From positions 2,838,001 through 2,902,000 of the forward strand of contig CANUEZ040000117.1 of NCBI GenBank assembly GCA_948099385.1: a stretch of DNA of 64,000 bases, written 5' to 3'. Positions 26,631 to 56,412 of this stretch are shown here, piece after piece (position 1 is the first letter of the stretch; the number at the start of each line of letters is the position of its first letter). The translations under genes and the position numbers were made by a program. The notes beneath the pieces were generated by a model. That model was not told the DNA's origin. It was given only the letters and a program-made list of their open reading frames with translations, and made no database searches. The stretch is from Fasciola hepatica (taxonomy: Eukaryota > Platyhelminthes > Trematoda > Plagiorchiida > Fasciolidae).

Positions 26631-26639
26631 CTAAGGAAT

Positions 26640-27790: not shown

Positions 27791-29209
27791 TCTTCGGCCG
27801 GGCCATACCCACACTGCTTTTCTCTATCTCACTTCCCTTTCCACTGATCCTCGATGACGGTCAACCACCTGGGGCACTAAACTGATTATCTACCTGGTTG
27901 GTTTACCAGCCTAATGGTGCTGTTCGGCCGTCTACCACTCTCCGTTCCCGTTGGCTAAGCTGTCCAACATCTCACAGCCCGACTAGTAGACCCTGGAGCA
28001 TATGCCTCTATCGCGGTTTCTCAGCCTCTGTACAACCATCAGTGATCACTCACTCCAATCCCAACGGTGAGAGGCGCGGTTGGATCCCCGCTTTGGCCAG
28101 CGCACATCGGGCGTGTAGGCTGTTTGCGGTGGTGTGCGAGCGCAAATAGGCTGGTGGATTACACCTCCTGTGTCTACTCCATGAAGTGGTTTCAGGTTGG
28201 GTGTCCAGCGCACGATCAGCCCCACCCACAGGCATCGGTTGCTGATTGCACTCTCTAACCATCCCCGCCCTACCGCATCCATCCTCGTCGGTTGCAGACC
28301 ACATGCTTATACCAAGTTTCCTCCGCCACGGTTTGCTCATCTATCGTTCTTGCCAACCCTCTCATCAACTCTCTTTCTTGTCGTTCTACCTCTGTATACA
28401 CACCTATGAATTTCGCCCTTGTTCCTACCGTTTCTCACCATGACAATCCCACTCATGATGTCACTCTTGCCTTATCAATTTCACTCCGCCCAAGCCTGAA
28501 GTATTTCCTTTTCCATCCGTGTGGCACTTGTCGGCTCCTAATCTCTATTGCCTTCGTACCTCCATATACTCATAAAGCTCTTTGATCACACACCTCACTA
28601 GCTGCCATTTTGCTGCATCATTTTGCCCATCTTATACCTCCCACCGTTACGCACCAGGCACATCCGTAACCGTGACCAATCGCCAAATAAGTACTCGCTT
28701 TTCCGCCTCTGCAGTTTTTACGAACAATTTTATTATCTTTCCACCGCCACCATATTTTTCATCTCGGAATCAGTAATTCTTCTGTGGATCTTCCTCTTTG
28801 GCAGTATCCTGATTAGCAACGTGTGGCTCAATCCATTTGTGCAATCGCCTGCAAGCACGCAACTCTTCTGTTTCATTCTCCCAACAGCGACGGACACATG
28901 TTTGTTCCATCACAGGTTTTACTGACTTAGTACCTCTTTTTTCTCTGGGTCTTGATCTTATTTCACCTGATCTGAATGTTCATCCCTTACTTGTTTCTGT
29001 TCTGTCAGTACTCTCATCTGTTTCGTATACTTCTTGCCACTGGAACCTTCAGTTTTCCTTTAGGCTACTTTGATTTTCCACGCACCACCTAATGTAAAGT
29101 CATCGTTACTTTGTTATTTTCAAGTACAGCTTCAAGCCATGTGATCTGCCCTTACCTGATCTTTCTGATCCTCCACTTTCTCAATTCTCTTTCATGTTAT
29201 TCACTGTTG

Positions 29210-29580
29210 CAGTAAGCAACAATTACTGGAAATCCCTCCAAGTGTTCCACGCGCTTTATAAATCTGGCTATATTTACATTACTTTGAAAATGTCATCCTT
29301 ACTCTACACTTTTGCACGCTTGTTTATATGTGTGAGACACTCGAATTTGGCCTTGAACCGTTTCTGGCCGTCGTGCATCAGCGACGGAGATTCGAACCTT
29401 TGGGTTTTATTGTGGAATCTATTAAGCCGCACACTTGAGGTTTGTATATAATTGTGCCCCTTGTGAATTTCATTTTAGTACCGTAGAAGCCACGAATCAA
29501 TCGTTTCCTGGATTTGAGATTCGTTGAATTGGCTACTCGTTGCTTGATTTGCAAGATTTGGCTTACAGGTGCAAATGCTG
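29210..29580 (+). repeat. Dispersed repeat of about 365 bp (copy 1)
   Basis: Shares long blocks with 44615-44975 (minus) and, less closely, with about 62.15-62.40 kb (plus); its arm partner is 53682-54052. Shared landmarks: TACTGGAAATCCCTCC, TTTGGCCTTGAACCGTTTCT, GAGGTTTGTATATAATT and TTAGTACCGTAGAAGCCACG. The copy directly before the BEL gag raises the possibility that this is a solo LTR; alternatively it is a SINE, because its minus strand has a B-box-like GGTTCGAATCT. Confidence 0.7.
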
Positions 29581-30039
29581 CATCATTGCGTTACTCTTCT
29601 TCATACGTAAGTCACATTTTTCTACTGATATTTTACACTAATCCGACCACTCTGTTTCTTCGTTTGTTCTGCTTTCTCGGGAAACTTCCACAGCCATCTT
29701 CTTGATACATAAAGTGCATCCATTTATTAACGCTGTACTCGTTTTTGATTTTCCCCAAATGTCATACTTGCAATAATCAGATTGTCAGGTTCATTATTGC
29801 ATGTTTTCTCCCAATTTTTCCTTCATATTCCCTCATTTATCAACTTTTCCCCACAGCCGTCACTTTTGTGCTCCCAAAATCGTTTCCCGCTCTCTTTGAA
29901 TCACCCGTATTCACCTGTCATAGACAGATTTATCAGGACCTAGTCAAGTTTATTCTGTGCCATTTGGTCTAATCCTACCCGTCTCTTACAAGCACTGCTA
30001 CCTCCGTGTTCTATCCCTTCATTGCTGTTTGCCCCTGCC

Positions 30040-30080
30040 TATACATATATATATATTCATGTATGTTTTTATATATCCAC
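30040..30080 (+). repeat. TA-rich microsatellite in left arm
   Basis: Alternating purine-pyrimidine tract with ATACATATATATATAT; partner in right arm at about 53182-53222. Length is the same in both arms, notable because such tracts mutate quickly. Confidence 0.85.
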
Positions 30081-30719
30081 CTATTTTCTCTGAATCCTCC
30101 AGCTGCTTGCAGGCCAATTGCCTCACCACAATGCCACTGCCCCTCAGATATGCATCCATTTCGTTCATATCTGTGCCTCATATTTACCGTATCTCCATCA
30201 GTCCGCACCATTGCTGTCATGTGAGCCACTCTTTACGTCTTGCATTGGCTGATCCCTGTCTTCAAATTGTCACCGTCCATTTGTTGCAATGAGGCATAGC
30301 TGAAGGTTACATAACTCTTAGCCATACAACTCAAACTTTCGTTCTCCCTTTCTCCCGTTCTCCTTTCTTTTTTTCTTCATCGTTTCTCGTACCAATAAGT
30401 TCTCATGCCGATTTTCAGTCCTCCTCATGTAAAACGCACACGTCCCGATCTCCTCCACATGGCTCGTTCCGTTCCTCTACCTCATCTTGACTTTCAAATT
30501 CACCGAGCATATATTTGAATCCATCCCTGGGTTCACTAAAACTCTCTCCATTATTCCTAGGTTTGCATTCATTTATCTCTCTCATCTGTTCTCTAGTTCT
30601 ACCTACCCCTAGTTTACCTTGCATAACTCCAGGTTTTCTCGACGTTTTCTGTCTATTTTTTGCTCCGAAATAAACGATGATTAATATTATAGTTGTTATT
30701 CTCATCAATCAAATCATGC

Positions 30720-32760
30720 ATTCCCAAATTTCGCCGGGAAGGTCCGAGGGTTTCCGATAACACTAGGAACTTCTGATCGATGGGGCAGCCGGAAAACTCC
30801 CTCTGATGAAGCTTGCTTTGTTAAATCTGTGTGCTTCAATAGGTTAATTACTTGGTGCCCCGGGTGCCTGCCTCACTGCTCAGTTAGCTTTTGGACCGGC
30901 TCAGCTATCCCTCTGAAGGAGAACTTTCTTTAACCCCAGCCGTAACATCCCTCGCGTTTAAAGGCTTTGTCATGTTCACAACCCATGGTCGAGTGGTCTC
31001 AATTCTGCCTTGTCACTGTCTTTGGATGATGTAATCCGGCAGCCCAGAGATCGTACGCACAGCGGTTAGCCTCAAGCTTTTTGGTCCAGCCCTAACTCTT
31101 GTCAACCTCGTGCCGGCTTCCCCTTCCAGCTGGCCACTGTGAATGACTGCCGTTTCACTGCTGTTGGATAGATCTTTTCATTTAAACCTTTAAAAAGCCG
31201 TGGTGCGCACATTCTTACACAGATCTGTAATGGCCAGGTCGTCAGCCGCCACATTGTTGCTCGAGTAATGTAAGTGTTGGTGCCGTTGATACACTTACTG
31301 AGCTTCGGCTCATGAAAATGTTTCTTCTCTTGTGCTTTTGCAGATCGAACACGCTCAACTCCCCGGCGGAATATCACTGCCGCTTGCGTGTTGCAGATCA
31401 CACACGCCCACCTCAAGCGGCGAAGTTCTACGTAAGGCTTCTGGTCACCAGGATAGATCTCGTTGTACCTCCAGTGAAGTCATTTGTTGCAAGACATGCA
31501 GCGAATAATTTCGTTCGCTCCTTTCTAGTGCAGACTAATGTCTTCTCCGGAAGCAGAAGGCCCCACAAAACTTTATCCCCCTACTGAGTAAAGGCAACAA
31601 AGTTTTGTTCTCAAAATCTAAAGCGTTGAAGAAAAGGAATAAAGTGCAAGATGTAGGGTTACTTAAACTCAGAGCTAATGGCTGAATGATACAAAAGCCG
31701 GGTGTGCTTTACATCAAGAACGACAGATGAGTTATGTCCGGCTGGAATTGTGAGTATCGCCACTTTCTGCCAAAAGATAGTATGGGCTCATCCTTTTTTC
31801 TACCTTCCTTCACTGTTCCCTTCAAAGTGCTTGAAGACCAGTTGGTTCTTGAATAAATATAACTTGCGTCGCCAGTAGGGAAGTTGTACTTTCAAGCTCC
31901 AGTTAGACTTAAGCCACAATATGGCGCAAAACTTTGATTGCCTGGTCTGTCTTGAAGTCCTGAAGCAATACGCAGGTGCCGGTCCTGATTTCAAATAATT
32001 TCGGATGCTTTGTTGTCGCAATCTGAATACTGCGGGCGAGATAGACGGTAGTTCACTGGATACTGAGACAAAGTTAGGGTTGGGGATACGAATGCTGACT
32101 GCATCTAGCCTCATGCATCGCCGGTGAGCAGGATAAAGAGCCACAGAAAAACAAAAGCGGGTCCAGTTATGTGACGTTTCCCTGAAAGTGTCAACAAAAA
32201 ACAGTTCGTTCCTTCAAATCTTCCAGAAGTCCTGTGGCAAGCTTCTAAGCCACGCACGTTGTGCAACGGAAGGGCCCTAACCTTTAGGCCAACTCAATTC
32301 AGGTCACAGGGCGCAGACGGCTGCTTATCAAGTTTGCGGGGGATTTCGCTTTGTGAAATCCTCAGATCACTCGGTGCCGAACACGTGGGATGGCTGAGGT
32401 TTCTTCGATGAGTTGTTTGAGGCAAGAGAAACAAGTTACATCCCACTGTGCTTCAATCCGAGAAGACTTCCCAAATCACTTTCTCCTGCAGGGTTTTGGA
32501 CGGCTTCATGCCTTTGCCAAGGGCAGTATTTGCGAGGGTAGGCGGGTTTGATGTGACGGAAGACGAGAAGAGGAGCCGGAAATTACCAAAGAAAGGGCGT
32601 AGGAAACGTGAGGATCCGAAGATGAGGTACACGGCCCAAAACCGATGAAAAATTCAGGAGTGTGGACGAAAGTGAACCGGGGAGTTTCAACATGCACATT
32701 GATGGCAAAAGCCACCGAGGGGAATAAAACAGCCAGCTGGGCCACAGGCCTATTTGATGG
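30720..32760. other. Unrecognised part of left arm
   Basis: Open frames of about 90-115 residues occur on both strands (30415-30708 minus, 31102-31416 minus, 31312-31587 plus, 31800-32144 minus), each with an identical translation in the other arm. None has a recognised domain. Exact conservation between arms says nothing about coding, since the non-coding DNA is equally conserved. Confidence 0.5.
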
Positions 32761-32762
32761 TT

Positions 32763-34000
32763 TGAGTAAACACTAATCCAGTTGCTGTCCATCCGATGCT
32801 TGAATTCGACAAAAATTGAAGCTGTTTTCGCTTCAGTCAGAAGCCGGTCTAAGCCACTCAATAAACTGGTCGCAAATAAATTTCCTCTCAAGTGACTAGA
32901 GACTGTTTTATTCATCAACTTCAATAGGCTTCTTATTGTCCGATTGGAAGAATGAAATAATGACAGTCAACAAATCAGTTCGTAATCTTGATGGTTTTAC
33001 TTCCACCGCTTCTACTCTTTCCGTCCTCGGGAGGCAACAAGTACAGTGCCTTCAGTTTAAGTCCATAGTCAAGGTCCCTCAGGCTCCCGAACCGCTGGAA
33101 GTGCAGTAGCAGCTCAGCACCCCTTGCAAAGTAAGTCCAACAAGCCGGAACACAAGACTACAGATGTAACCGAATAAGCGTTTTGTTAAACCACAACGCA
33201 ACCGGAGGTTTTCCAGATTATAGAACTTTTTTCAGCATGTGAAACTCCTTGGAGGCCTTTTGAGTAGCCAAGCGAAATCGGACCCCTGATCAAAGGTCGC
33301 CCGATATGGTCGACCCTATGTTCGCGACTGCTTCAACATTAGCCTCGCCAAGACATCAAGTCGGCTAATAGTTCCGCTGTCTACCGGGTGGACACACTTA
33401 GTGACAATAAATGGCGAGTCCCACACTGTTGATGGGTTTCACACCGCTTACAGTTTCCGACGCTGAGAATCTTACTCTACCGAGTCTACCAACTTTGCTC
33501 CGTCCGCAATTGTCCAGAACAGGTATAAAAGACCAAATTCAAGATGGCTGTGAGTGCGGTGGACAGGATAAGGGGCTGAACCGTGGACCATACAGCAGCG
33601 CTCTGCTCTCCCTGGGATATAATATACTCCATCTCGACCTGAAAGGTTCTATCGATGAAACACATAAGGACCCACTCAATAACTTCCGGAGACAGGCCAG
33701 AAGCACAAAAATTAGTCAGCAACAAACGACTATATACTGAGTGGAAAGCTTCATGGAGGCGGAGGTGCAAGCGTCTATTCCATCTCTCTGATTTAATTTT
33801 TGGCAACCTCATACAAACCGGAAGCATTTTGACAGGCTGGATGACTGTGTTCCCTTGTCATGGGGTTTGTATCTGTCCAGCCAGTCGTATGCAAATAGAT
33901 GGCTCATAAGTGGGCTATGAGCACTAACGAATGAGAACTCCATACAGAAATGACAGGGAAGAGTTCTGTTTGACTCGGTCGATACAACCTCGTTTATATT
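32763..34000 (-). pseudogene. CR1-like LINE RT and C-terminus in left arm
   Basis: Frame 33486-33827 reads AFHSVYSRLLLTNF and then GLSPEVIEWVLMCFIDRTFQ, matching D-F-S-K-A-F-D-x-V-x-x-x-L-L-x-K-L, G-I-x-x-x-L-x-x-W-I-x-x-F-L-x-x-R of LINE RT. About 33.0 kb keeps LDYGLKLKALYLLPPE (family ExRLxxLxLxxLxxRR). Frame 32583-32924 ends with HLRGNLFATS, LDRLLTEA and FVEFKHRMDSNW, the C-terminal W-N-x-L-P/FKxxLD region. Several stops intervene and no active-site FADD was found. The same decay is present in the right-arm copy, so the element was already dead before duplication. Confidence 0.8.
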
Positions 34001-35074
34001 CAGAAGCATTTACTCTCTGACCAGGCACAAAGCGATTCCATTGTGTTCACACTCTTTACTGTCGACCGTCAGTTTTACCTGATCTGTTGGATGAAGAAAG
34101 CAAAGCTCCAGCTTACTGGAGCGGTCGGAAGGCACTGGAAAAACTAGTTGTCGTGGCCAACCGATGAACGGTCAAGTGGGTGTCAACCTTGACTTGCAAG
34201 ACTCTCTCTATTACTCCTAGCAACAGCCGAGCTCGAATAGAGGGTCTAGAGCTAAAACAAGTTCCTCCATTCCAGCTCTGTCGATTGAGGCGACCGACGG
34301 CTTAAGCAAATACTGCTGTTGAGCATTTTCGTTCATTTCACTCCGGAAATCAAGGTCATAGAAGGTGCCATAAGCTCCATCAGGAGTTGAACAATAGCTG
34401 CATGGATAACATCGGACCTCGGTGCCTTGGTCCTTGCCAACCAATTAGCTCTATGAGCCTTCTGAGTCACCGTGAACGTCCTAGGTTCGCGATTCAGCCT
34501 CAGTGGAGGTCAGTTAAAGTCCTAAAGCCCAGGTGTCCTTCAAATACACCTGCTGGATTTGCTACCGAAAGGATTGGTCCTTCTGGAGTCTGTCGGCGAC
34601 TACCCGGCCCTGAAAATCTCTGACAATAATTACGCCCACCCCGGATCAGCTCTGAACTTGAAGTTATTGTTGCGTCACTTTCAGTTGGTTTTGCCCCTTG
34701 AAGTCATGCGGATTTCTCCCTCCGAATAACCTGCCCGATTCGGCTGGTCCACCATGCCTGTAATAAAAAATGATGTGCATCTGAGTCCAAAAACGATAAA
34801 CAGGTTCACTTCAGACTGAGCGAACGATTAGCCGGTGATCTTGGAGACGTGCATTGCCAGGTCACCCGTTACAACCTTTGCTATTCTGTTTTCACCAGTG
34901 ATCGCACTATTCAAGGTCGTCCATAGGCATTAATGGTAAACGATGGTAATCAATAACTAATTTATGGACAATCATCACGCCAGCTTCAGTGAGAATGAAG
35001 CCTTGGGATTCTGTGACCGCTGAGCGGTTCATGGACAACAATATACACTGACATTCGGCAAGATGATTTTTCAC
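34001..35074. other. Inner part of left arm, unrecognised
   Basis: Possible upstream RT of the adjacent LINE, but frames are heavily broken and no motif is secure. Open frames at 34217-34444 (minus) and 34387-34623 (plus) are identical in the other arm and have no recognised domain. Confidence 0.4.
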
Positions 35075-36550
35075 CCCTCAAGAAAGCAAAATAGTGAATA
35101 AAATCTTGGAATGTTAATTCAATAGGCACCGTTTTATACGAATACAAACCAGGGCGACACCTTAAAAGCAGAGAAAGCACTTTAAGAAAATCCAAGGTTT
35201 TTTAACTTTCGTATTCGCCACTCACTATTCTCCAAACTCGAAGGCAGAAAGACGAACTGTAATTAAGTATAGTAATTAGCGACAACTCTCTAAAGGCTAA
35301 GTGGGCTCCACCCATCGTTTGTTCATTGTTGGCTTCAACCCAACCACTATCGACGGCAAAGTGCTGGCAACCCTGAAACACCCTTAGCAAGCCCTTTCTA
35401 GATTTCCTCCTAACACCTTTTGAGTGCAAAACGTAAAGGAGCCAACCAAGGAGCGCAGACATACTCTCTCCTTACCGGATTTCTTCATCTCTGCTGGATG
35501 GCTCCAAAGCAATTAGGCGCTCCACTTTCCATTTATTGGTAAAAGGGATCAGGTTCTCATTAATTTCGAATGTTTTGTGAGTTAATCTCTACTTCTCCCA
35601 GAACTCAAACATTTTCGAACAATTGAAGAGACCAGTTCTGACGAAGCCAGCGCCTTCATGAACTCCCACTTGGAATCAGCCAACCTCCACAAATCTTCTG
35701 ATGAGATGGCAGAAAGTCTCGGAGGTTTGATCTTCTCCGCTGACAGGCTAGTCTTCAATAAAACTTGTCTTCCACAGCCGAATAAAAGGCCTCTCTCTTG
35801 ACTCCGCAGAGGCATCCTAGAAGAACTTGCAAGTACTTTCGTGTGTGAAGCCACAGGTCCCACAGGTGCGGAAAACTTCGGGATCATCCGCATCAGACGT
35901 GAAAACAATACCAAGTCCCATCAAAAGGGTAGTCCAGCAGTGGATAACTGCTCCTGCAAGGATGAACAAAACATTTTTTCTTTCATTGCGTGCTTCGTTT
36001 GGGGGGCACTACTCCGACGCCTCCATCTGTCAGAGACAATGCAGGATCCTTAGTCATATATCCATCCAAGTGCATGAACCCTTTAGCCCTATTTTTGTTG
36101 AATTTTCAGATCTATCCCCGTATGTCGAACTTCCGTGGACCCAGTACCTTTGGTCTTCGTTCTCATCCATACCACTATTTCTATTTTTGCAGTTATACAA
36201 GGTTTCTGTTGGTTCAGCGAACACCAATGGAGGTCTTGACTTGATCGGCCCCTACATTTCTGAGGAAGGGGTGGCCACATTAGTTGCTCTCTATGCACCT
36301 CATTTTCAGTGATGTTTATAGTGGAATTTTCTTCAGCAGCCGGAACAATGCAGTTATCGCACTCATCACGGAAAAGTGCAATAGACACCTTGCTCCGGTT
36401 TATACACCCACAAGTCGGACTAGCGTCACTGGCTAACTTTCCGGGCATATCCTCAGCAGTGCTGTTCTTTGCCATTTGCATAAAGAAAAGATCTCCTCCC
36501 CGTTCTAACATGAGTTTCTTTTGGCCGATCGTGCATCACCATTAGGCCTA
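35075..36550. other. Unrecognised stretch at start of spacer
   Basis: Overlapping frames on both strands (35827-36312 plus, 161 residues; 36089-36511 minus, 140 residues) lack secure motifs. By position it may be the endonuclease and linker of the plus-strand LINE whose RT palm lies at 36.56-36.95 kb. Confidence 0.4.
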
Positions 36551-36555
36551 CTGGC

Positions 36556-36950
36556 GTGGACGGTCTGACAAAGGTCTACAACGATGGTCATCCCTCGCTG
36601 GCTTTATTCATTTATTTCTCCAGGGTCATCGCCAAGATCCTGCATGCCACTCTTCTTTATAAGCAGCACGTTTACGAGCTCACAGGTTCCTTGCTTGATA
36701 CCTTGCACACTTTTCCTGCCGAACGCACCTTCGTTAATAAAATACGGAAAATATCTGTCTCAAGGTTCGGCAGTAATCAAGGGTGTCCCATAAAGTTCAG
36801 CCATATGTCCTTTCTGTTCTTGATCTACATAAATGATCTCCCGACAACCGTTTCAGTGGAAAAGGAAATATATACGGACGGAATGTTCCGCTGGACTTGA
36901 AGAGATGAACACTCCCCAAACCGCATTTCATGGAAGGCAAAGCTGATCCG
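36556..36950 (+). pseudogene. LINE reverse transcriptase palm fragment
   Basis: A 114-residue frame reads AERTFVNKIRKISVS, SNQGCP, then FLFLIYINDLPTTVS and EIYTDGMFRWT. These correspond to the RT motifs xRTFxVK, SGCPQGSVLSP, LLFLIYINDLP and the YADDxxxW active site. The active site is YTDG (36871-36882), so the second catalytic aspartate is lost. The frame stops just after it, and the downstream thumb was not recognised in 36.95-37.9 kb. Confidence 0.78.
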
Positions 36951-38190
36951 TGGAATGGAACCTTTCAGCTTATGATAACACGTGTGGGCAAGTCATTCAT
37001 CAAAGCCACTGGTCATGTGTTCCCCTTCAAAGGAGCTGGTTCCAGGTTTCTAGCTAGATTTTTATTCATCTTTCTTCCGTGATCACCGACATGCAAGCAA
37101 ATCTGCCGCTCAGATCATGACTATGGTTCGGGTTCCTTTATCCCGCCGCTCCATGGACTATTTCTTTGCAATTTTTGGTACAAAATTCTGTCCTGTTCGG
37201 AGGTATGGTAGTCTGATAGCGGATTCTAGTCTTGGCAAAGATCGTGCGATCCTGGGAAGGCCTCAGAGAGCTTCCTCCAGCGCTGCTTAAGGATTACTCC
37301 GCCTATTTTATCCAGTCATTTTTTCGCTTCCTAATTACCATCTTCTTGATCGATTGACGCATAAAATGCCACCCGGTTTTGAAGCTGCTATTTTTAAACC
37401 AGGTCAAAACGATTGCTTCCCCCTGTTCGTTCAGGCTCTTCTCTCCGCTGCCTCGGAAGAAATGTTTTAAAACCCAACCCAGGCACTTGTCTGGGGACTA
37501 GCCGTTTCTACCTGCAGAGCAGGTACTCTGTGGAATGCCTCTCCAAATTATACTGCTTTTATGGAGCAAAGCACTCTTCAAGGAAAAGGTAAAAGTCCAC
37601 CTCAGTCCCTCCAGCATCTCCTTGTCCAGGAGCAAAAACGTTGATAGATGCCTTTTATTGCAATTTCATTCCGCTACTTCCGGAAATGTCACAGCCCTAT
37701 TCATGCTGGAGCCCTGACCTTAGTGAGAAACTGGCTGATGCCACATATGTCTAGTTTCTGTGAACTTTTCATACCTCCTCTCTTCGCCTTCCTCTGCTTT
37801 CTTGCTAGTTCGGAGAATCTAACAGACCGTCAAATTTTCATCAAGAACCAGCACAATAAGGCCTCATGCATCAAGCCCGTTTAGTGACTCCAGATTTATA
37901 TTGGAAATAAATTTTGCCTTTTAGCGTCTCGTTGAATTCGCTCTGTGCGGTCAGCATTTCTACTGGAGCTTTGTTTATTGCAATATCCTTCACAACGTGG
38001 ACAGCCGATCCTCCAGTTTGCAAGTGGCCTTGGTGGACACCAAAGTTTGGTGCAATATTCAGAATCCACTGAAGTGCCACTAGGGTGCAGCAAGAAAGTG
38101 AAGCGAGACATCAAGCGATCCTTGAGAGCAGAGAAGAGGCATGTCCTGAGGCTAACGATGGTTACTTCTAGTCTGAGGCCACAGCTACAG
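36951..38190. other. Unrecognised stretch between LINE fragments
   Basis: Probably retroelement-derived by position between two plus-strand LINE RTs, but no motif is clear. Open frames at 37535-37717 and 37648-37884 (plus) are unassigned. Confidence 0.4.
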
Positions 38191-38199
38191 TCGCAGTAG

Positions 38200-41630: not shown

Positions 41631-41635
41631 CATGT

Positions 41636-43550: not shown

Positions 43551-43553
43551 GTC

Positions 43554-43845: not shown

Positions 43846-44614
43846 ACGCCAAAGAAGCATTTTCAGCCTTTGATCCAGATAAGCCCTCGTCTAATGACTA
43901 GAGCACACTAGTAAACGAAGTCAAAAGTACGAGCTTACCGTTTAGTGACAGTCCGGATCATCTTTACAGGATCATCACTGCCACTGGAATCCAAAAGTGG
44001 GCAACCATGAGATCCCCAGATTATAGCCCTGTGGCAAACTCTTCCAGTTCTCACCAGCAGTCATTCAGTGGATCCAATCTGCTGGTGTTCAACCTGAACA
44101 AATTACACCTCTCTGGAGTCTCTGGAGAATTGAAGATCCCATATGGAATTTTCACTGACCCACGGCTAGAGCAAGGGAGCCAGACTTTACAGCTTGCACC
44201 ATAATTCCGGGGACGTTTTTCGGAGTTCGAGTTTTGCAACGTATCAGTTAAAAGCTCACCAGTAAGCAAGAACACGAAACTGTCGCGCAGCTTATGATGA
44301 AGTCAGCTAGGGAACAACGCAAAAACCGGGTGAAAACGGGGCAAGTTAGCTGAACTGACTCGGCATTTGGTGTATATAATTTGGTCCAGGCTCCACACTC
44401 ACCTTAAGCTAAGGAGTCACAGTTTATACAGTCCTTGTAAATACAAAGAAAAGCAATAAATAGAGAGGGTGATAGTCAGCCGTCGAGACAGGCTGATGTC
44501 TAAGGTTAAAATGAACTCTTTCACCTTTCGTTCTGGTCATTATTGTGTCTAGTCCATTCCTGCTCCGTGAAAATACCTTGGCTTTTACCAGGTTGACCTC
44601 CGTGACGCGAGCTC
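43846..44614. other. Unrecognised stretch after LINE RT
   Basis: May include decayed thumb and C-terminus of the LINE RT to the left. An open frame at 44007-44204 (plus) has no clear motif. Confidence 0.35.
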
Positions 44615-44975
44615 ATGGTAACTGTAAGTCAGTTCTCGCAAATCGAGCAATGCGCAGACAATTCAAACGAATCACAAAACCAGATCAAGGTTAATTACTA
44701 GTTTCTGCGGTACTAAATTGCAATTCACAGAGGGCAAAAATATATACAAACCTCAAGTATGCGGCCAAATAGACTTCACAGTAAGACCCAAAGGTTAAAA
44801 GCCACATGGCTCAAGCACGACAGTCAGAAACGGTTCAAGGCCAAATTCAAATGTCACATATGGATAAACAAACGTAATACGTGTGGTATATGTGCGAGCT
44901 TTTCAAAGTAATGTCAAGTATAGTGAACTTCACAAGGCACGTAGAACATTTGGAAAGATTTCCAGTGTTTGTTTT
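44615..44975 (-). repeat. Dispersed repeat of about 365 bp (copy 2)
   Basis: Reverse complement of a diverged version of 29210-29580. Shared blocks include AGAAACGGTTCAAGGCCAAA, ATATACAAACCTCAAGT and TTTCAAAGTAATGT. Divergence is roughly 15-20% by eye, far more than between the two inverted arms, so this copy is independent of the large duplication. Confidence 0.72.
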
Positions 44976-45330
44976 TTCCAGTAACTTTGCGGGAGTTATT
45001 TAAATACTATCAAAATCGGTCGCGTCTACTGGGGTATGCAACAATAAAGATGAAGTGAAATGCCCAGGATTATTTCGCGTAATTTAACACTCTCGGGTGT
45101 TCAAACACTCTCATTGCTTTGTACGTTTTTCGAAATGAGAAAAGCTGGGGCGGTCTGTCTTACCTACCTTACTTAAGTGCTCCTTTGGACGTCACTACAT
45201 GATGTGCGCTGACTAATTTATTGTTCGCTCTGTAAAAAGTAAAGTCGTCAGAATATGTACCGTGGATTGTAGTAAAGCTTTTGGTGTCCAGCACTCCGTC
45301 AGTCCCATTCACCAGCACCTATTACGGATT
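44976..45330. other. Nothing recognised
   Basis: No open frame of note or repeat seen. TTTGGTGTCCAGCACTCCGTC near 45281 faintly recalls the FDxVxHxxL motif of a LINE RT, too weak to call. Confidence 0.3.
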
Positions 45331-46920
45331 TCGTACCCTCACTGTCGTAGCCGTTCCAAACACAATAAAAATGTTTGCTGATTTTACGGTTTCATTGTTC
45401 CCGTTCTACCACGGTAGGCTCGCCCAACAACGATTTAATTGATATAACCTATTCTTGTTCCCACATCTCGCGTGCACACTCGGCATCTTTTTTCCTATGG
45501 CCACCGTCATCATTCTACCACCGTTTGAACACCTATCAGTTTCTTCCGTGCCTTTATTGTATCTCGTCAAGAGCCCAATCCGTACCCATGCCCAGTAGTC
45601 GTTAGGACTCGCCTTCTGACATTTGCATCTTTTGCTACCACATTTATTATCCATTCAATTCCACCATATATTTCATGCTGGGCCCCATGAATCCCTCTCG
45701 GTCTCTCCATCAGGGAGGGCCTCGACTGGCATCTTCGGTTCATTCCACTTTTAAGATTGTCTGCAGGCACGCAGCTCTCCAGCTCCACCGTCCCATCCCC
45801 TCCAAACATAGAGCTTACGTAATAAATGTTCCATCTCATGTTTTCTCATCCCGGAACCTCCTTCTTCCTCGGCCCATATGGTGCTCCGCCTGGGGCAAAA
45901 TAATCTATTTATTCATCACTTACCTGCTTCATCTCAGCCATTTCCCCCATCTCCTGTTTTATGGCTTGTTCCCCGTGGAAATCGTTTCTTCGCCCTGCTG
46001 CTTGCTACGTTTCTCCGCGTTCCATTGGTTTTAACAATTGCCACATCTTGAACTTCAACTGCAGTTCCAAACGATATGTTCCACCGATACTGCTGACATC
46101 TATTCTTTAATATACCCATTTCTCTCTTACGTTGTTCACCGTTATAACTGGTGCATTCTTGTACCCCAGTCAGACTCACTTTCCGGTTCCTTCACTCCGC
46201 TTTTAGTCTTCACTTCTACTACCACTAAGAAAGCATAATTTCTAAGTGTTTCCAAACCATCTCCATCGCCATTATCCTGTTGGATCATAATGTACTTTCA
46301 CTTCCTACTGCTCCTCTTATTATCGACCATCATCTCATTATGCACTAACTTCGAGTAAGGTAGTCGAATCATTCCTACCTGCCTCTTCGATCGCTTTCCT
46401 TATCATTCGTTCTCCACGAACCGTTCACCACATTCGACGTCACCTCCATGCCCCTAAGCCCGACGTTCCTTCTTGCAGGCTCAGCAGGTTCCAATTATCA
46501 AACAGATTCCCACAAGTCATGATTTTCCGCTGACATCTCACACTTCATCGTTCATATTGAGCACTATTTCGCTCCACATGCTCCGGTTTTTGACGGCTAT
46601 CTACTCAGCGTAATCCATCTGCCTCTCTTGGATTGCTTCCATTCTGATGACATATATACCTCGTGGCCATTGCATACCAACCTCTCCTAAACATTCCTTA
46701 TGTCTGACTCACTTTCAAGGCACTTTTCGCTCGCTCCATGTTCCACACTGAGTTTCCCAACCCGCTGCTGATCGTTTATTGCAGTGTGGCAATGCGCCAT
46801 TTCTATCCATTCCTTTTCCATGCACACAAATTTCTTCTTCATCGCCTTTTTTAACTCAGCCATTCCAACCATCTTTTGACTCTCCCATGGACTGATCCCA
46901 ACTTTCATCTGTCTTCACCC
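45331..46920. repeat. Pyrimidine-rich block
   Basis: Plus strand is strongly C/T-rich with recurrent TTCCACCG, CCACCGT and TTCCGTTC-like words, similar in texture to 22.5-23.6 and 28.3-29.1 kb. Tandem structure is likely but I could not fix a period. Open frames follow the bias (45675-46034 plus) and show no domain. Confidence 0.4.
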
Positions 46921-48187
46921 GGACCAGTCCGACTCCACCGCCCTGACTTTTGGATTCGCTGTGCACTAATTCCAGTTCGTCAGTGGATCTGATTAAGCTC
47001 CCTCCGCCATTCCCTGGTGTGCGGACTTTTGTCCCACATTAATCTAGGTTGAGTTCATTCATCATACCTTTTTCATACCTTTTTCCTCGTAGTCAAGAAA
47101 TATTTGTCCATGTAATCGTCCGTAACATTTTGCTTATGTGTCTGGTGTGGTTTAGGCCCCTACGAAATAAACTTTTATTATTACCACTCACTGAGTACCA
47201 GGAAGAACGTTGCGAAATACGTTAGGCGACGTGAATAGCTAGCCTCCTGTTGGAGGCCATTATTCTGGTACCTATGCCAGTCACGAATAACTGTCACATT
47301 TAGGGTCACAAGGGGTTGAACTCGGTAAACGAATCATTGGGCAAATGCGATCAATGTGATCAACTTTATTTACACTCAATGGGTTGCTTCCCTGATGCAT
47401 TACGCTAAAATTTGTTAACTTAGGTCGTGTCCAAACCATGAGAGGACAATCATCGACATATCTTTTGGAATACTGATCTGATTCTTCCATGGGTACCTTC
47501 AAAGTTGCCCTCTCAGTGATGGAGACGGAACATCGATGCAAATCGTCTGTTTCTCGTTAGTGATATTAGTTACCATGATTCCATCTCGGTCACAGATAGT
47601 TTTGAACCTTTAAATCCTATTTCATTTAACATCTTGTTATTCTCATTTTACAGCTACATCAGACCGACAAATTTGTGCGCAGCAACTGAACACACGTTAC
47701 CTATTCTGGGATTTTCTATTGATTCTAGTAATGGCCAAACTGGGAGCTTTTTTGAATGCGCTTTTTTGTCACAGAATATGAAAATATTTTACTCCAACTG
47801 GAGACTGTTCAAGGCATTACCATTTTCATATAAATTCAGTAGCAGAAAAAATTGTTTCCCCCAATGAAGAAAACGACTTTCTGTGCAATGCGATGAATAA
47901 ATTGCCGGTAAATCCTGTGTTTAATTCGGTGCGGTAGTATCCCCAGAAACCCTCACCCCTTGTCTGACATAAGGTGGTGACAAATTTCAATGCTGCTGGT
48001 ATCACGTGATATAAAGGGTGACCTGAAAGCCCAACAGATTAGTTCTCATAATGATTCTACGAGGTGATTCGAGTCAAGAAGCTTTTCTTCCTGGCTATGG
48101 ATTTGTTTATCATATGAGTGTCTTTTATGGGATAAACCGTAGAAGTTTCAGAAAAAATACATTTGGTGAAGTACTCCCCCCCCCCGC
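46921..48187. other. Unrecognised end of spacer
   Basis: A directly repeated ACCTTTTTCAT pair lies at about 47067-47090. No domain. Frames at 47281-47541 (minus) and 47634-47867 (plus) are unassigned. Confidence 0.4.
48176..48185 (+). repeat. Poly-C run (10) at inner junction
   Basis: Ten C end two bases before the first base of the right arm (48188). Such a run is a plausible break or slippage site, and also a spot prone to assembly error. Confidence 0.9.
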
Positions 48188-49261
48188 GTGAAAAATCATC
48201 TTGCCGAATGTCAGTGTATATTGTTGTCCATGAACCGCTCAGCGGTCACAGAATCCCAAGGCTTCATTCGCACTGAAGCTGGCGTGATGATTGTCCATAA
48301 ATTAGTTATTGATTACCATCGTTTACCATTAATGCCTATGGACGACCTTGAATAGTGCGATCACTGGTGAAAACAGAATAGCAAAGGTTGTAACGGGTGA
48401 CCTGGCAATGCACGTCTCCAAGATCACCGGCTAATCGTTCGCTCAGTCTGAAGTGAACCTGTTTATCGTTTTTGGACTCAGATGCACATCATTTTTTATT
48501 ACAGGCATGGTGGACCAGCCGAATCGGGCAGGTTATTCGGAGGGAGAAATCCGCATGACTTCAAGGGGCAAAACCAACTGAAAGTGACGCAACAATAACT
48601 TCAAGTTCAGAGCTGATCCGGGGTGGGCGTAATTATTGTCAGAGATTTTCAGGGCCGGGTAGTCGCCGACAGACTCCAGAAGGACCAATCCTTTCGGTAG
48701 CAAATCCAGCAGGTGTATTTGAAGGACACCTGGGCTTTAGGACTTTAACTGACCTCCACTGAGGCTGAATCGCGAACCTAGGACGTTCACGGTGACTCAG
48801 AAGGCTCATAGAGCTAATTGGTTGGCAAGGACCAAGGCACCGAGGTCCGATGTTATCCATGCAGCTATTGTTCAACTCCTGATGGAGCTTATGGCACCTT
48901 CTATGACCTTGATTTCCGGAGTGAAATGAACGAAAATGCTCAACAGCAGTATTTGCTTAAGCCGTCGGTCGCCTCAATCGACAGAGCTGGAATGGAGGAA
49001 CTTGTTTTAGCTCTAGACCCTCTATTCGAGCTCGGCTGTTGCTAGGAGTAATAGAGAGAGTCTTGCAAGTCAAGGTTGACACCCACTTGACCGTTCATCG
49101 GTTGGCCACGACAACTAGTTTTTCCAGTGCCTTCCGACCGCTCCAGTAAGCTGGAGCTTTGCTTTCTTCATCCAACAGATCAGGTAAAACTGACGGTCGA
49201 CAGTAAAGAGTGTGAACACAATGGAATCGCTTTGTGCCTGGTCAGAGAGTAAATGCTTCTG

Positions 49262-50499
49262 AATATAAACGAGGTTGTATCGACCGAGTCAAACAGAACT
49301 CTTCCCTGTCATTTCTGTATGGAGTTCTCATTCGTTAGTGCTCATAGCCCACTTATGAGCTATCTATTTGCATACGACTGGCTGGACAGATACAAACCCC
49401 ATGACAAGGGAACACAGTCATCCAGCCTGTCAAAATGCTTCCGGTTTGTATGAGGTTGCCAAAAATTAAATCAGAGAGATGGAATAGACGCTTGCACCTC
49501 CGCCTCCATGAAGCTTTCCACTCAGTATATAGTCGTTTGTTGCTGACTAATTTTTGTGCTTCTGGCCTGTCTCCGGAAGTTATTGAGTGGGTCCTTATGT
49601 GTTTCATCGATAGAACCTTTCAGGTCGAGATGGAGTATATTATATCCCAGGGAGAGCAGGGCGCTGCTGTATGGTCCACGGTTCAGCCCCTTATCCTGTC
49701 CACCGCACTCACAGCCATCTTGAATTTGGTCTTTTATACCTGTTCTGGACAATTGCGGACGAAGCAAAGTTGGTAGACTCGGTAGAGTAAGATTCTCAGC
49801 GTCGGAAACTGTAAGCGGTGTGAAACCCATCAACAGTGTGGGACTCGCCATTTATTGTCACTAAGTGTGTCCACCCGGTAGACAGCGGAACTATTAGCCG
49901 ACTTGATGTCTTGGCGAGGCTAATGTTGAAGCAGTCGCGAACATAGGGTCGACCATATCGGGCGACCTTTGATCAGGAGTCCGATTTCGCTTGGCTACTC
50001 AAAAGGCCTCCAAGGAGTTTCACATGCTGAAAAAAGTTCTATAATCTGGAAAACCTCCGGTTGCGTTGTGGTTTAACAAAACGCTTATTCGGTTACATCT
50101 GTAGTCTTGTGTTCCGGCTTGTTGGACTTACTTTGCAAGGGGTGCTGAGCTGCTACTGCACTTCCAGCGGTTCGGGAGCCTGAGGGACCTTGACTATGGA
50201 CTTAAACTGAAGGCACTGTACTTGTTGCCTCCCGAGGACGGAAAGAGTAGAAGCGGTGGAAGTAAAACCATCAAGATTACGAACTGATTTGTTGACTGTC
50301 ATTATTTCATTCTTCCAATCGGACAATAAGAAGCCTATTGAAGTTGATGAATAAAACAGTCTCTAGTCACTTGAGAGGAAATTTATTTGCGACCAGTTTA
50401 TTGAGTGGCTTAGACCGGCTTCTGACTGAAGCGAAAACAGCTTCAATTTTTGTCGAATTCAAGCATCGGATGGACAGCAACTGGATTAGTGTTTACTCA
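49262..50499 (+). pseudogene. CR1-like LINE RT and C-terminus in right arm
   Basis: The mirror copy of the left-arm LINE. Frame 49435-49776 carries the DFSKAFD-like AFHSVYSRLLL and GLSPEVIEWV blocks; frame 50338-50679 carries HLRGNLFATS and FKHRMDSNW. Compared with the left copy it has a serine-to-glycine and a glutamate-to-lysine change in the first frame and none in the second. All stops are shared, so the decay precedes the duplication. Confidence 0.8.
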
Positions 50500-53400
50500 A
50501 ACCATCAAATAGGCCTGTGGCCCAGCTGGCTGTTTTATTCCCCTCGGTGGCTTTTGCCATCAATGTGCATGTTGAAACTCCCCGGTTCACTTTCGTCCAC
50601 ACTCCTGAATTTTTCATCGGTTTTGGGCCGTGTACCTCATCTTCGGATCCTCACGTTTCCTACGCCCTTTCTTTGGTAATTTCCGGCTCCTCTTCTCGTC
50701 TTCCGTCACATCAAACCCGCCTACCCTCGCAAATACTGCCCTTGGCAAAGGCATGAAGCCGTCCAAAACCCTGCAGGAGAAAGTGATTTGGGAAGTCTTC
50801 TCGGATTGAAGCACAGTGGGATGTAACTTGTTTCTCTTGCCTCAAACAACTCATCGAAGAAACCTCAGCCATCCCACGTGTTCGGCACCGAGTGATCTGA
50901 GGATTTCACAAAGCGAAATCCCCCGCAAACTTGATAAGCAGCCGTCTGCGCCCTGTGACCTGAATTGAGTTGGCCTAAAGGTTAGGGCCCTTCCGTTGCA
51001 CAACGTGCGTGGCTTAGAAGCTTGCCACAGGACTTCTGGAAGATTTGAAGGAACGAACTGTTTTTTGTTGACACTTTCAGGGAAACGTCACATAACTGGA
51101 CCCGCTTTTGTTTTTCTGTGGCTCTTTATCCTGCTCACCGGCGATGCATGAGGCTAGATGCAGTCAGCATTCGTATCCCCAACCCTAACTTTGTCTCAGT
51201 ATCCAGTGAACTACCGTCTATCTCGCCCGCAGTATTCAGATTGCGACAACAAAGCATCCGAAATTATTTGAAATCAGGACCGGCACCTGCGTATTGCTTC
51301 AGGACTTCAAGACAGACCAGGCAATCAAAGTTTTGCGCCATATTGTGGCTTAAGTCTAACTGGAGCTTGAAAGTACAACTTCCCTACTGGCGACGCAAGT
51401 TATATTTATTCAAGAACCAACTGGTCTTCAAGCACTTTGAAGGGAACAGTGAAGGAAGGTAGAAAAAAGGATGAGCCCATACTATCTTTTGGCAGAAAGT
51501 GGCGATACTCACAATTCCAGCCGGACATAACTCATCTGTCGTTCTTGATGTAAAGCACACCCGGCTTTTGTATCATTCAGCCATTAGCTCTGAGTTTAAG
51601 TAACCCTACATCTTGCACTTTATTCCTTTTCTTCAACGCTTTAGATTTTGAGAACAAAACTTTGTTGCCTTTACTCAGTAGGGGGATAAAGTTTTGTGGG
51701 GCCTTCTGCTTCCGGAGAAGACATTAGTCTGCACTAGAAAGGAGCGAACGAAATTATTCGCTGCATGTCTTGCAACAAATGACTTCACTGGAGGTACAAC
51801 GAGATCTATCCTGGTGACCAGAAGCCTTACGTAGAACTTCGCCGCTTGAGGTGGGCGTGTGTGATCTGCAACACGCAAGCGGCAGTGATATTCCGCCGGG
51901 GAGTTGAGCGTGTTCGATCTGCAAAAGCACAAGAGAAGAAACATTTTCATGAGCCGAAGCTCAGTAAGTGTATCAACGGCACCAACACTTACATTACTCG
52001 AGCAACAATGTGGCGGCTGACGACCTGGCCATTACAGATCTGTGTAAGAATGTGCGCACCACGGCTTTTTAAAGGTTTAAATGAAAAGATCTATCCAACA
52101 GCAGTGAAACGGCAGTCATTCACAGTGGCCAGCTGGAAGGGGAAGCCGGCACGAGGTTGACAAGAGTTAGGGCTGGACCAAAAAGCTTGAGGCTAACCGC
52201 TGTGCGTACGATCTCTGGGCTGCCGGATTACATCATCCAAAGACAGTGACAAGGCAGAATTGAGACCACTCGACCATGGGTTGTGAACATGACAAAGCCT
52301 TTAAACGCGAGGGATGTTACGGCTGGGGTTAAAGAAAGTTCTCCTTCAGAGGGATAGCTGAGCCGGTCCAAAAGCTAACTGAGCAGTGAGGCAGGCACCC
52401 GGGGCACCAAGTAATTAACCTATTGAAGCACACAGATTTAACAAAGCAAGCTTCATCAGAGGGAGTTTTCCGGCTGCCCCATCGATCAGAAGTTCCTAGT
52501 GTTATCGGAAACCCTCGGACCTTCCCGGCGAAATTTGGGAATGCATGATTTGATTGATGAGAATAACAACTATAATATTAATCATCGTTTATTTCGGAGC
52601 AAAAAATAGACAGAAAACGTCGAGAAAACCTGGAGTTATGCAAGGTAAACTAGGGGTAGGTAGAACTAGAGAACAGATGAGAGAGATAAATGAATGCAAA
52701 CCTAGGAATAATGGAGAGAGTTTTAGTGAACCCAGGGATGGATTCAAATATATGCTCGGTGAATTTGAAAGTCAAGATGAGGTAGAGGAACGGAACGAGC
52801 CATGTGGAGGAGATCGGGACGTGTGCGTTTTACATGAGGAGGACTGAAAATCGGCATGAGAACTTATTGGTACGAGAAACGATGAAGAAAAAAAGAAAGG
52901 AGAACGGGAGAAAGGGAGAACGAAAGTTTGAGTTGTATGGCTAAGAGTTATGTAACCTTCAGCTATGCCTCATTGCAACAAATGGACGGTGACAATTTGA
53001 AGACAGGGATCAGCCAATGCAAGACATAAAGAGTGGCTCACATGACAGCAATGGTGCGGACTGATGGAGATACGGTAAATATGAGGCACAGATATGAACG
53101 AAATGGATGCATATCTGAGGGGCAGTGGCATTGTGGTGAGGCAATTGGCCTGCAAGCAGCTGGAGGATTCAGAGAAAATAGGTGGATATATAAAAACATA
53201 CATGAATATATATATATGTATAGGCAGGGGCAAACAGCAATGAAGGGATAGAACACGGAGGTAGCAGTGCTTGTAAGGGACGGGTAGGATTAGACCAAAT
53301 GGCACAGAATAAACTTGACTAGGTCCTGATAAATCTGTCTATGACAGGTGAATACGGGTGATTCAAAGAGAGCGGGAAACGATTTTGGGAGCACAAAAGT

Positions 53401-53681
53401 GACGGCTGTGGGGAAAAGTTGATAAATGAGGGAATATGAAGGAAAAATTGGGAGAAAACATGCAATAATGAACCTGACAATCTGATTATTGCAAGTATGA
53501 CATTTGGGGAAAATCAAAAACGAGTACAGCGTTAATAAATGGATGCACTTTATGTATCAAGAAGATGGCTGTGGAAGTTTCCCGAGAAAGCAGAACAAAC
53601 GAAGAAACAGAGTGGTCGGATTAGTGTAAAATATCAGTAGAAAAATGTGACTTACGTATGAAGAAGAGTAACGCAATGATG

Positions 53682-54052
53682 CAGCATTTGCACCTGTAAG
53701 CCAAATCTTGCAAATCAAGCAACGAGTAGCCAATTCAACGAATCTCAAATCCAGGAAACGATTGATTCGTGGCTTCTACGGTACTAAAATGAAATTCACA
53801 AGGGGCACAATTATATACAAACCTCAAGTGTGCGGCTTAATAGATTCCACAATAAAACCCAAAGGTTCGAATCTCCGTCGCTGATGCACGACGGCCAGAA
53901 ACGGTTCAAGGCCAAATTCGAGTGTCTCACACATATAAACAAGCGTGCAAAAGTGTAGAGTAAGGATGACATTTTCAAAGTAATGTAAATATAGCCAAAT
54001 TTATAAAGCGCGTGGAACACTTGGAGGGATTTCCAGTAATTGTTGCTTACTG
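53682..54052 (-). repeat. Dispersed repeat, right-arm copy with B-box-like motif
   Basis: Mirror of 29210-29580. On the plus strand it has GGTTCGAATCT at 53864-53874, an excellent match to the internal B box of tRNA-type RNA polymerase III promoters, and CGGCTTAATAG at 53833-53843, a fair A-box match. Their spacing (20 bp) is shorter than in tRNA genes. No tRNA cloverleaf forms that I can see. Confidence 0.55.
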
Positions 54053-55471
54053 CAACAGTGAATAACATGAAAGAGAATTGAGAAAGTGGAGGATCAGAAA
54101 GATCAGGTAAGGGCAGATCACATGGCTTGAAGCTGTACTTGAAAATAACAAAGTAACGATGACTTTACATTAGGTGGTGCGTGGAAAATCAAAGTAGCCT
54201 AAAGGAAAACTGAAGGTTCCAGTGGCAAGAAGTATACGAAACAGATGAGAGTACTGACAGAACAGAAACAAGTAAGGGATGAACATTCAGATCAGGTGAA
54301 ATAAGATCAAGACCCAGAGAAAAAAGAGGTACTAAGTCAGTAAAACCTGTGATGGAACAAACATGTGTCCGTCGCTGTTGGGAGAATGAAACAGAAGAGT
54401 TGCGTGCTTGCAGGCGATTGCACAAATGGATTGAGCCACACGTTGCTAATCAGGATACTGCCAAAGAGGAAGATCCACAGAAGAATTACTGATTCCGAGA
54501 TGAAAAATATGGTGGCGGTGGAAAGATAATAAAATTGTTCGTAAAAACTGCAGAGGCGGAAAAGCGAGTACTTATTTGGCGATTGGTCACGGTTACGGAT
54601 GTGCCTGGTGCGTAACGGTGGGAGGTATAAGATGGGCAAAATGATGCAGCAAAATGGCAGCTAGTGAGGTGTGTGATCAAAGAGCTTTATGAGTATATGG
54701 AGGTACGAAGGCAATAGAGATTAGGAGCCGACAAGTGCCACACGGATGGAAAAGGAAATACTTCGGGCTTGGGCGGAGTGAAATTGATAAGGCAAGAGTG
54801 ACATCATGAGTGGGATTGTCATGGTGAGAAACGGTAGGAACAAGGGCGAAATTCATAGGTGTGTATACAGAGGTAGAACGACAAGAAAGAGAGTTGATGA
54901 GAGGGTTGGCAAGAACGATAGATGAGCAAACCGTGGCGGAGGAAACTTGGTATAAGCATGTGGTCTGCAACCGACGAGGATGGATGCGGTAGGGCGGGGA
55001 CGGTTAGAGAGTGCAATCAGCAACCGATGCCTGTGGGTGGGGCTGATCGTGCGCTGGACACCCAACCTGAAACCACTTCATGGAGTAGACACAGGAGGTG
55101 TAATCCACCAGCCTATTTGCGCTCGCACACCACCGCAAACAGCCTACACGCCCGATGTGCGCTGGCCAAAGCGGGGATCCAACCGCGCCTCTCACCGTTG
55201 AGATTGGAGTGAGTGATCACTGATGGTTGTACAGAGGCTGAGAAACCGCGATAGAGGCATATGCTCCAGGGTCTACATGTCGGGCTGTGAGATGTTGGAC
55301 AGCTTAGCCAACGGGAACGGAGAGTGGTAGACGGCCGAACAGCACCATTAGGCTGGTAAACCAACCAGGTAGATAATCAGTTTAGTACCCCAGGTGGTTG
55401 ACCGTCATCGAGGATCAGTGGAAAGGGAAGTGAGATAGAGAAAAGCAGTGTGGGTATGGCCCGGCCGAAGA

Positions 55472-56400: not shown

Positions 56401-56412
56401 ATTAATTACAGG

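What the first reader, a model, noticed from the sequence alone, without database searches (positions are those of the whole stretch)
27791..55471. 7,284-bp inverted duplication, about 99.8% identical, around a 13.1-kb spacer
Positions 27791-35074 and 48188-55471 are reverse complements with no net indel over the full arm (paired coordinates always sum to 83262) and only about 13-15 noticed substitutions. Even a TA-rich microsatellite has equal length in both arms. The arms contain an already dead LINE with the same stops, so the similarity is recent compared with the contents. Either the duplication is young, or the arms are being homogenised by gene conversion as in sex-chromosome palindromes. 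A large intra-chromosomal hairpin of this size is unusual in a repeat desert without genes.
Basis: seen in the sequence. Interest (0 to 1): 0.85.

Follow-up and report, generated by a model that had tools for sequence, protein, structure and literature searches.

The report
Young inverted copy in flatworm DNA
A 7.3-kilobase stretch of non-coding DNA in what looks like a parasitic flatworm was recently copied backwards to a spot about 20 kilobases away, apparently starting inside an old repeat present at both places; such near-identical local copies seem common in this genome.

Summary
The arms 27791-35074 and 48188-55471 are 7,284-bp reverse complements with 14 substitutions and no indels (99.81%). 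No third full-length copy appeared in a search of the 1.50-Gb assembly.

It is best read as a recent inverted segmental duplication with a recoverable direction. At the right inner junction an old repeat (47863-~48222) runs into the arm, as it does in all 10 genomic copies whose search rows crossed that point and in 8 of 12 sampled copies whose rows stopped short. At the left inner junction only its 35-bp stump remains. So the right arm is the source and the left arm the copy. The outer junction lies in register inside another old repeat ("R") on both sides, whose two flanking parts are no more alike (64%) than different family members (61-70%). That points to one recent homology-seeded copying event with a non-homologous end, rather than an ancient palindrome kept alike by gene conversion. 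Patchy differences (P about 0.009) leave room for a later conversion tract.

It is not exceptional here: copies of five repeats show 16 same-score inverted and 10 direct local pairs or arrays; three inverted pairs compared base by base are 98.9-99.8% identical. An assembly artefact is unlikely but not excluded; no reads were available.

The parts
27791..35074 (+). Left arm, inferred derived copy
   Evidence: 99.81% identical to the right arm, 14 substitutions, 0 indels; inner end cuts off an old repeat that continues on the right
48188..55471 (-). Right arm, inferred source
   Evidence: the old repeat at 47863-48222 runs across its inner junction
35075..48187 (.). 13,113-bp spacer containing decayed repeats
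   Evidence: old repeat at about 35286-35996; no Rfam match at gathering score in the window
26500..27790 (+). Outer flank of the left arm: 5' part of an old interspersed repeat (family R), retained by the recipient site
   Evidence: 60-74% identical per 300-bp bin to genomic copies L031, L032, L038 (from 26500) and L034, L035 (from about 26800); L033, L036, L037 do not reach so far (L036 only from about 27400); 64% to the right flank over 27400-27790
27791..30660 (+). Rest of family R inside the left arm (mirror 52602-55471 in the right arm)
   Evidence: 38 other genomic places at 72-76% over the first 1.4 kb, 40 of 11,927 first-look candidates scored; family homology ends at about 30660
55472..55863 (-). 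Outer flank of the right arm: family R continues in register
56075..56728 (-). Second, partial family R copy beyond the right flank
   Evidence: 66% to 27064-27685, 71% to a copy at 68.1-68.7 kb
47863..48222 (+). Old interspersed repeat spanning the right inner junction
   Evidence: 10 of 37 rows of this repeat cross 48187|48188, 27 stop short. The 10 were fetched: 20/32 to 27/33 identical over 48188-48222, 24-43% beyond. Of 12 of the 27 short ones fetched, 8 carry the 35-bp stump at P below 0.03
35040..35074 (-). 35-bp stump of that repeat at the left inner end, followed by unrelated DNA
   Evidence: no genomic match crosses 35074|35075 among 39 of 39 scored candidates, the window itself aside
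48176..48185 (+). C10 run (G10 in the direction of copying), 2 bp beyond the end of the copied tract
   Evidence: sequence; most of the 22 fetched copies have fewer C here
29206..29568 (.). About 363-bp repeat inserted in family R in both arms (mirror 53694-54056); a further copy at 44622-44985
   Evidence: 76% to 44622-44985; absent from the eight other family R copies aligned

Best explanation
A real, recent inverted segmental duplication. SHOWN: the two arms; their low divergence; that the right inner junction is the older arrangement; that the outer junction lies in register inside a family R repeat present on both sides. INFERRED: a break or stalled fork occurred in or beside the left R repeat. 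The exposed end paired with the R repeat about 20 kb away in opposite orientation, DNA synthesis copied 7,284 bp of the right side inward, and synthesis ended 2 bp short of a G10 run. The new end was then joined without homology to the left site at 35075, and whatever R sequence had followed there was lost. This is break-induced replication or synthesis-dependent copying seeded by inverted repeats and closed by end joining or a template switch. Differences then accumulated on both arms, perhaps with a short conversion tract. No function is implied; it is a by-product of repair in DNA without recognised genes.
For: Arms. Two full-length places among the scored candidates. Direction: the old repeat crosses the right inner junction in the 10 fetched copies chosen because their rows cross it, and its stump is also found (P below 0.03, 500 shuffles) in 8 of 12 fetched copies whose rows stop short; an unrelated 35-mer from the left flank reached P below 0.05 in 0 of 22. 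Against those ten copies the left junction matches only by the stump, and nothing crosses it genome-wide (39 of 39 scored). Outer junction in register within R. The R flanks look like independent insertions: left-right 64.2%, left versus the six other copies 61.4-67.9%, right versus them 61.5-70.1%. No family R remnant in 35075-37500. Mutations polarise to both arms: of nine inside the R part and its insert, five or six on the right, two on the left, one unclear. Published two-step model of the same shape: break-induced replication in inverted repeats, then microhomology-mediated replication or end joining (PMC4352052, passages read).
Against: The R flanks are only about 64-68% alike, and in yeast inverted Alus with 65% homology did not raise rearrangements even in resected DNA, while 75% did (PMC10164571 section 19). 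The core of R is more alike between loci (73-81% per 300-bp bin over 28000-29200), so pairing may have begun there, but the recipient's original sequence is gone. The cross-junction repeat extends only about 35 bp into the arm; 27 of 37 search rows of that repeat stop short of the junction, and 4 of the 12 of these that were fetched did not show the stump at P below 0.05. The clustered differences (3,048-bp gap, P 0.009) are not what one clean recent copy predicts. The homologous start is seen in this pair alone: boundaries readable in three other inverted pairs are non-homologous. The G10 stall is a guess from position. No reads were available to check the assembly.
Confidence: 0.55

Rival explanations
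1. An older inverted duplication whose arms are kept alike by arm-to-arm gene conversion, as in sex-chromosome palindromes and some nematode inverted repeats.
For: Differences are patchy: 3,048 bp without any, P 0.009. A neighbouring inverted pair (117147-122662/123360-128877) has 22 of 29 substitutions in its outer 1.2 kb, longest gap P 0.001, and its nested 630-bp repeats show nine variants confined to one of four copies. Nematode precedent PMC1803023 (abstract and discussion read).
Against: The outer R flanks are no closer to each other than to other family members, so no diverged outer rim of an old arm is seen. The inner junction is directional. One difference-free run in one pair is weak, and the neighbouring pair contains a reverse transcriptase ORF, so it may be a mobile-element structure.
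Confidence: 0.2
2. Microhomology-driven template switching or other non-homologous inverted duplication; the R repeat at the outer junction played no part.
For: Other inverted pairs have at least one non-homologous boundary: in C44, C182 and C46 family R runs past the boundary on one side only. The identity at the outer flank is low.
Against: Family R continues in register on both outer sides here, which a random breakpoint would not give.
Confidence: 0.15
3. Assembly artefact (fold-back read, or a second haplotype stitched in backwards).
For: Divergence near a plausible heterozygosity level; no reads examined.
Against: A 13-kb spacer between 7.3-kb arms is not a fold-back read. The flanks beyond the arms differ from each other. 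Differences are mostly transitions with no indels, unlike long-read error. Other local pairs span 95.7-99.8% (three inverted and one direct), a range rather than one level.
Confidence: 0.07
4. Terminal inverted repeats of one giant mobile element.
For: The outer 2.9 kb of the arm belongs to a repeat family often found in inverted pairs 9-90 kb apart.
Against: The eight inverted pairs occur in both relative orientations, four each. Pair boundaries differ from locus to locus. The inner 3.9 kb of the arm has no other full copy among the 40 of 2,165 candidates scored. The outer edge lies inside family R rather than at its end.
Confidence: 0.03

Closest known systems
Inverted-repeat-mediated complex rearrangement (DUP-TRP/INV-DUP) at human PLP1 and MECP2
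   Same: One junction lies within inverted homologous repeats, the other is non-homologous; the proposed route is break-induced replication followed by microhomology-mediated replication or end joining (PMC4352052 passages)
   Different: Here one 7.3-kb segment is duplicated, no triplication is seen, the seeding repeat is old and about 65% alike at the flank rather than about 99%, and it is part of an assembled genome rather than a patient rearrangement
Widely spaced, divergent inverted repeats interacting in single-stranded DNA (yeast)
   Same: Divergent inverted repeats, or repeats up to 30 kb apart, provoke rearrangement (PMC10164571 passages and section 19)
   Different: Homology of 65% had no effect there; the products described there are gross chromosomal rearrangements through dicentric inverted dimers, not small interstitial inverted copies
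Palindromes kept alike by gene conversion (sex chromosomes, recalled; nematode inverted repeats, PMC1803023 abstract and discussion)
   Same: Near-identical long arms in inverted orientation
   Different: No recognised genes in the arms, a long 13-kb spacer, no comparison across species, and the outer flanks do not show an old arm
Ordinary intrachromosomal segmental duplications (definition recalled)
   Same: Over 1 kb, over 90% identical, low copy, spanning repeat borders
   Different: Nothing essential; only the direction of copying and the homologous start can be read unusually well

Membership tests
Segmental duplication (intrachromosomal, inverted) | At least 1 kb and at least 90% identical | tested here: met
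   7,284 bp, 99.81%
Segmental duplication (intrachromosomal, inverted) | Low copy, not a high-copy mobile element as a whole | tested here: met
   two full-length places among 40 of 11,927 candidates scored; the inner 3.9 kb has no other full copy among 40 of 2,165 scored
DUP-TRP/INV-DUP type rearrangement | First junction within inverted homologous repeats | tested here: met
   outer junction in register inside family R on both sides, at only 64-68% identity
DUP-TRP/INV-DUP type rearrangement | Second junction non-homologous | tested here: met
   inner flanks show no homology
DUP-TRP/INV-DUP type rearrangement | Inverted triplicated segment between duplicated segments | tested here: not met
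   only one duplicated segment, two copies
Gene-converting palindrome | Arms evolve in concert (alike within a species, different between species) | not testable with these tools
   the search tool states that this genome has no relatives held
Gene-converting palindrome | Conversion tracts visible as clustered differences | tested here: inconclusive
   longest gap 3,048 bp, P 0.009
Gene-converting palindrome | Sex-linked or non-recombining location | not testable with these tools
   contig C117, 10.7 Mb, of unknown chromosome
Mobile element with long terminal inverted repeats | Further copies with the same termini | tested here: not met
   no third full-length arm; boundaries of other inverted pairs differ

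The most novel reading that the evidence does not exclude
This flatworm genome continually makes local inverted and direct duplications of a few kilobases, and the old pyrimidine-rich repeat R is a preferred seed for the inverted kind. R copies form 8 inverted to 1 direct same-score local pairs, against 8 to 9 for four other repeats (Fisher P 0.087, the present pair not counted), and a diverged relative of R forms a separate palindrome 22 kb beyond the right arm. If so, roughly a fifth to a third of old repeat loci have a near-identical neighbouring copy (6 of 30 and 9 of 29 ancestral loci, counted by hand), far above human segmental duplication content (recalled, about 5-7% of the genome).
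Probability: 0.3. Interest if true: 0.65.

Novelty: new member of a known kind. Interest (0 to 1): 0.38.

Why it matters
Large inverted duplications are usually studied in tumours, patients or yeast, where the original state is known. Here old, decayed repeats act as rulers that reveal which arm is the source, where copying began and where it stopped. If near-identical local copies are as common as these searches suggest, this genome offers many natural breakpoints for testing whether inverted-repeat-seeded copying builds segmental duplications in the germline.

Tried and rejected
Rejected: terminal inverted repeats of a giant element (both orientations and different boundaries); an old arm with a diverged rim; the equal microsatellite length as evidence (16 bp only); mutation asymmetry between arms as evidence (5 to 2, P 0.45); an overall excess of inverted over direct pairs (16 to 10, P 0.33).

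Led nowhere: a protein search with the fragment 39467-39850 found no homologue; Pfam gave nothing above its cut-offs for six decayed fragments; no Rfam family in the window at gathering score. Of the papers listed by searches (10 of 11 listed; 1; 0 found; 6 of 61 listed), none by title concerns inverted duplications in flatworms; PMC10900676, on segmental duplications and subtelomeres in Schistosoma mansoni, was seen in the listing only. PMC12249497 (Spirometra genome) was seen in passages, with no occurrence of the word inverted.

Caveats of the tally: 'same score' (bits within 5%, query span within 15, within 100 kb) stands in for near identity. Only three inverted pairs (C44, C182, C46) and one direct pair (C34, 95.7%, which failed the score test) were compared base by base. 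Most lists hold only the 40 best-scored candidates. In one search the family is young, so equal scores mean little; copies are also alike, so C183, C72 and C67 are only probable pairs. The C26 array and the C92 direct pair were counted by eye. Of the 39 other places only 8 rows, on four contigs with neighbouring copies, were typed into; a C16 inverted pair there lies 108 kb apart and falls outside the limit. Same-contig pairs that failed the score test: C34, C179 (three), C146, C62, C159, and C43 6.44 Mb (two).

The first ten copies used for the inner junction were chosen because their rows cross it; the control with 12 of the 27 rows that stop short was added later.
Full report
THE OBSERVATION. 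The window is C117:2838001-2902000 of a 1.4998-Gb assembly in 656 contigs. A reverse transcriptase ORF in the same contig has its named best relatives mostly in Paragonimus, Sparganum, Schistosoma, Dicrocoelium and other flatworms, at roughly 40-60% identity, beside many unnamed hits and a few labelled bacterial. The organism is therefore very probably a parasitic flatworm; the species was not found. The two arms are as described: 7,284 bp, 14 substitutions, no indels, 11 transitions and 3 transversions, divergence 0.19% (0.105-0.322%). A search with the whole arm gave two full-length places, the arms themselves, with 40 of 11,927 first-look candidates scored. The window has no Rfam match at gathering score.

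WHAT LIES AT THE OUTER ENDS. Homology between the two sides does not stop at 27791/55471. It falls to about 66-68% and goes on in register to 27364/55881, and a second copy on the right matches to 27064/56728. This is an old interspersed repeat, here called R, covering at least 26500-30660 on the left. It has 38 other scored places at 72-76% over the first 1.4 kb of the arm. Eight of them (five distinct loci) were aligned with both arms; five of the eight rows run through the junction far into the left flank, L036 only to about 27400, and L033 and L037 begin near it. Over 27400-27790 the left and right flanks are 64.2% alike; left versus six other copies 61.4-67.9%; right versus the same six 61.5-70.1%. 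The two R copies therefore look like separate insertions, not two halves of an old duplicated arm.

WHAT LIES AT THE INNER ENDS. The flanks share nothing. A search with the left junction gave 39 scored candidates of 39, none besides the window itself crossing 35074|35075. A search with the right junction found a common old repeat starting at about 47863 (40 of 301 candidates scored). Of 37 rows of this repeat outside the arms, 10 cross 48188 and end at about 48209-48219; 27 stop at 48121-48182, before or at the C run. The ten crossing copies were fetched and aligned: 20/32 to 27/33 identical over 48188-48222 and 24-43% beyond. Because these were chosen for crossing, 12 of the 27 others were fetched too. 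The 35-bp arm stump is found past the C run in 10 of 10 of the first set (0 of 500 shuffles as good) and in 8 of 12 of the second at P below 0.03; 4 of 12 did not reach P 0.05. An unrelated 35-mer from the left flank did so in 0 of 22. The left junction matches the ten copies only by the stump and then turns into unrelated DNA. The right arrangement is thus the older one. The copied tract stops 2 bp before a run of ten G in the direction of copying; that this stopped the polymerase is a guess.

MECHANISM. A start inside a shared inverted repeat and a non-homologous end is the two-step pattern proposed for human rearrangements at inverted repeats: break-induced replication within the repeats, then microhomology-mediated replication or end joining (PMC4352052, passages). 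The main objection is the low identity of the R flanks: inverted Alus of 65% homology were inert in yeast while 75% were not (PMC10164571 section 19). R is better conserved between loci just inside the arm (73-81% over 28000-29200), so pairing may have begun there. Nothing of the recipient's own R was found in 35075-37500, so it was lost or was never there.

AGE AND CONVERSION. Nine of the 14 differences lie in the R part or its insert. With outgroup copies five or six are changes on the right, two on the left, one unclear, so both arms have been gathering mutations; the imbalance is not significant. The differences leave a 3,048-bp stretch without any (P 0.009). A later conversion tract would explain it, but one such run is weak evidence. 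A neighbouring inverted pair shows stronger clustering, yet it contains a reverse transcriptase ORF and may be a mobile-element structure.

HOW COMMON. In 264 kb around the finding there are three inverted pairs with arms over 4 kb and above 99%: this one, 77348-81586/81781-86021 (99.79%, spacer about 195 bp, a diverged relative of R at 59-74%) and 117147-122662/123360-128877 (99.44%, spacer about 700 bp). A further 5.3-kb inverted pair at -16049 to -2666 is 91% alike and a 2.35-kb one at 94286/143371 is 95% alike; by eye both are retroelements. Genome-wide, among 38 other places of the R segment 16 lie in eight same-score inverted pairs 9-90 kb apart and two in one direct pair. Among 37 other places listed for an old repeat from the spacer, 8 lie in four inverted pairs and 5 in direct groups. 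Adding searches gives 16 inverted and 10 direct pairs or arrays in all, no overall excess of inverted ones (P 0.33). Base-by-base identities where sequence was held: C44 99.8%, C182 99.4%, C46 98.9%, all inverted, and C34 95.7%, direct. In C44, C182 and C46 family R runs past a boundary on one side only, so those boundaries are non-homologous; the homologous start is shown for the present pair alone.

VERDICT. The feature is real in the assembly and best explained as one recent inverted segmental duplication, copied from right to left. It looks ordinary for this genome. The open and more interesting question is why this genome holds so many near-identical local copies, and whether the pyrimidine-rich R repeat (63% pyrimidine against 51% for the window) favours the inverted kind.

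Noticed in passing
window coordinates 77348-86021 (outside the window; C117:2915348-2924021, loci L020-L021): A 4.2-kb palindrome with a spacer of about 195 bp and 99.79% identical arms, built of a diverged relative of family R; after its ragged outer edge it has only two substitutions and one 2-bp indel.
   Followed up: partly
window coordinates 116598-130767 (outside the window; C117:2954598-2968767): Nested palindromes with a reverse transcriptase ORF (RVT_1; by eye Penelope-like): 5.5-kb arms at 99.44%, 22 of 29 differences in the outer 1.2 kb, each arm holding a further 630-bp inverted pair; nine variants are confined to one of the four 630-bp copies.
   Followed up: partly
G000:C26:655597-1304851: 13 same-strand copies of the junction repeat, including two series of four equal-score copies spaced about 90.6-90.9 kb, suggesting a tandem array of large units over at least 0.65 Mb.
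   Followed up: no
G000:C48:1426228-1448283 and C1:1333082-1353193: Direct local duplications: three equal-score copies 10.0 and 11.5 kb apart on C48; a 14.3-kb spacing on C1 seen with two different repeats.
   Followed up: no
window 31221-31402: About 170-bp piece with dozens of genomic copies at mostly 86-91%, often as same-strand pairs about 490 bp apart, as if part of a short tandem or terminal-repeat element.
   Followed up: no
window 57317-57387: Perfect (TA)35.5 tract outside the right arm.
   Followed up: no
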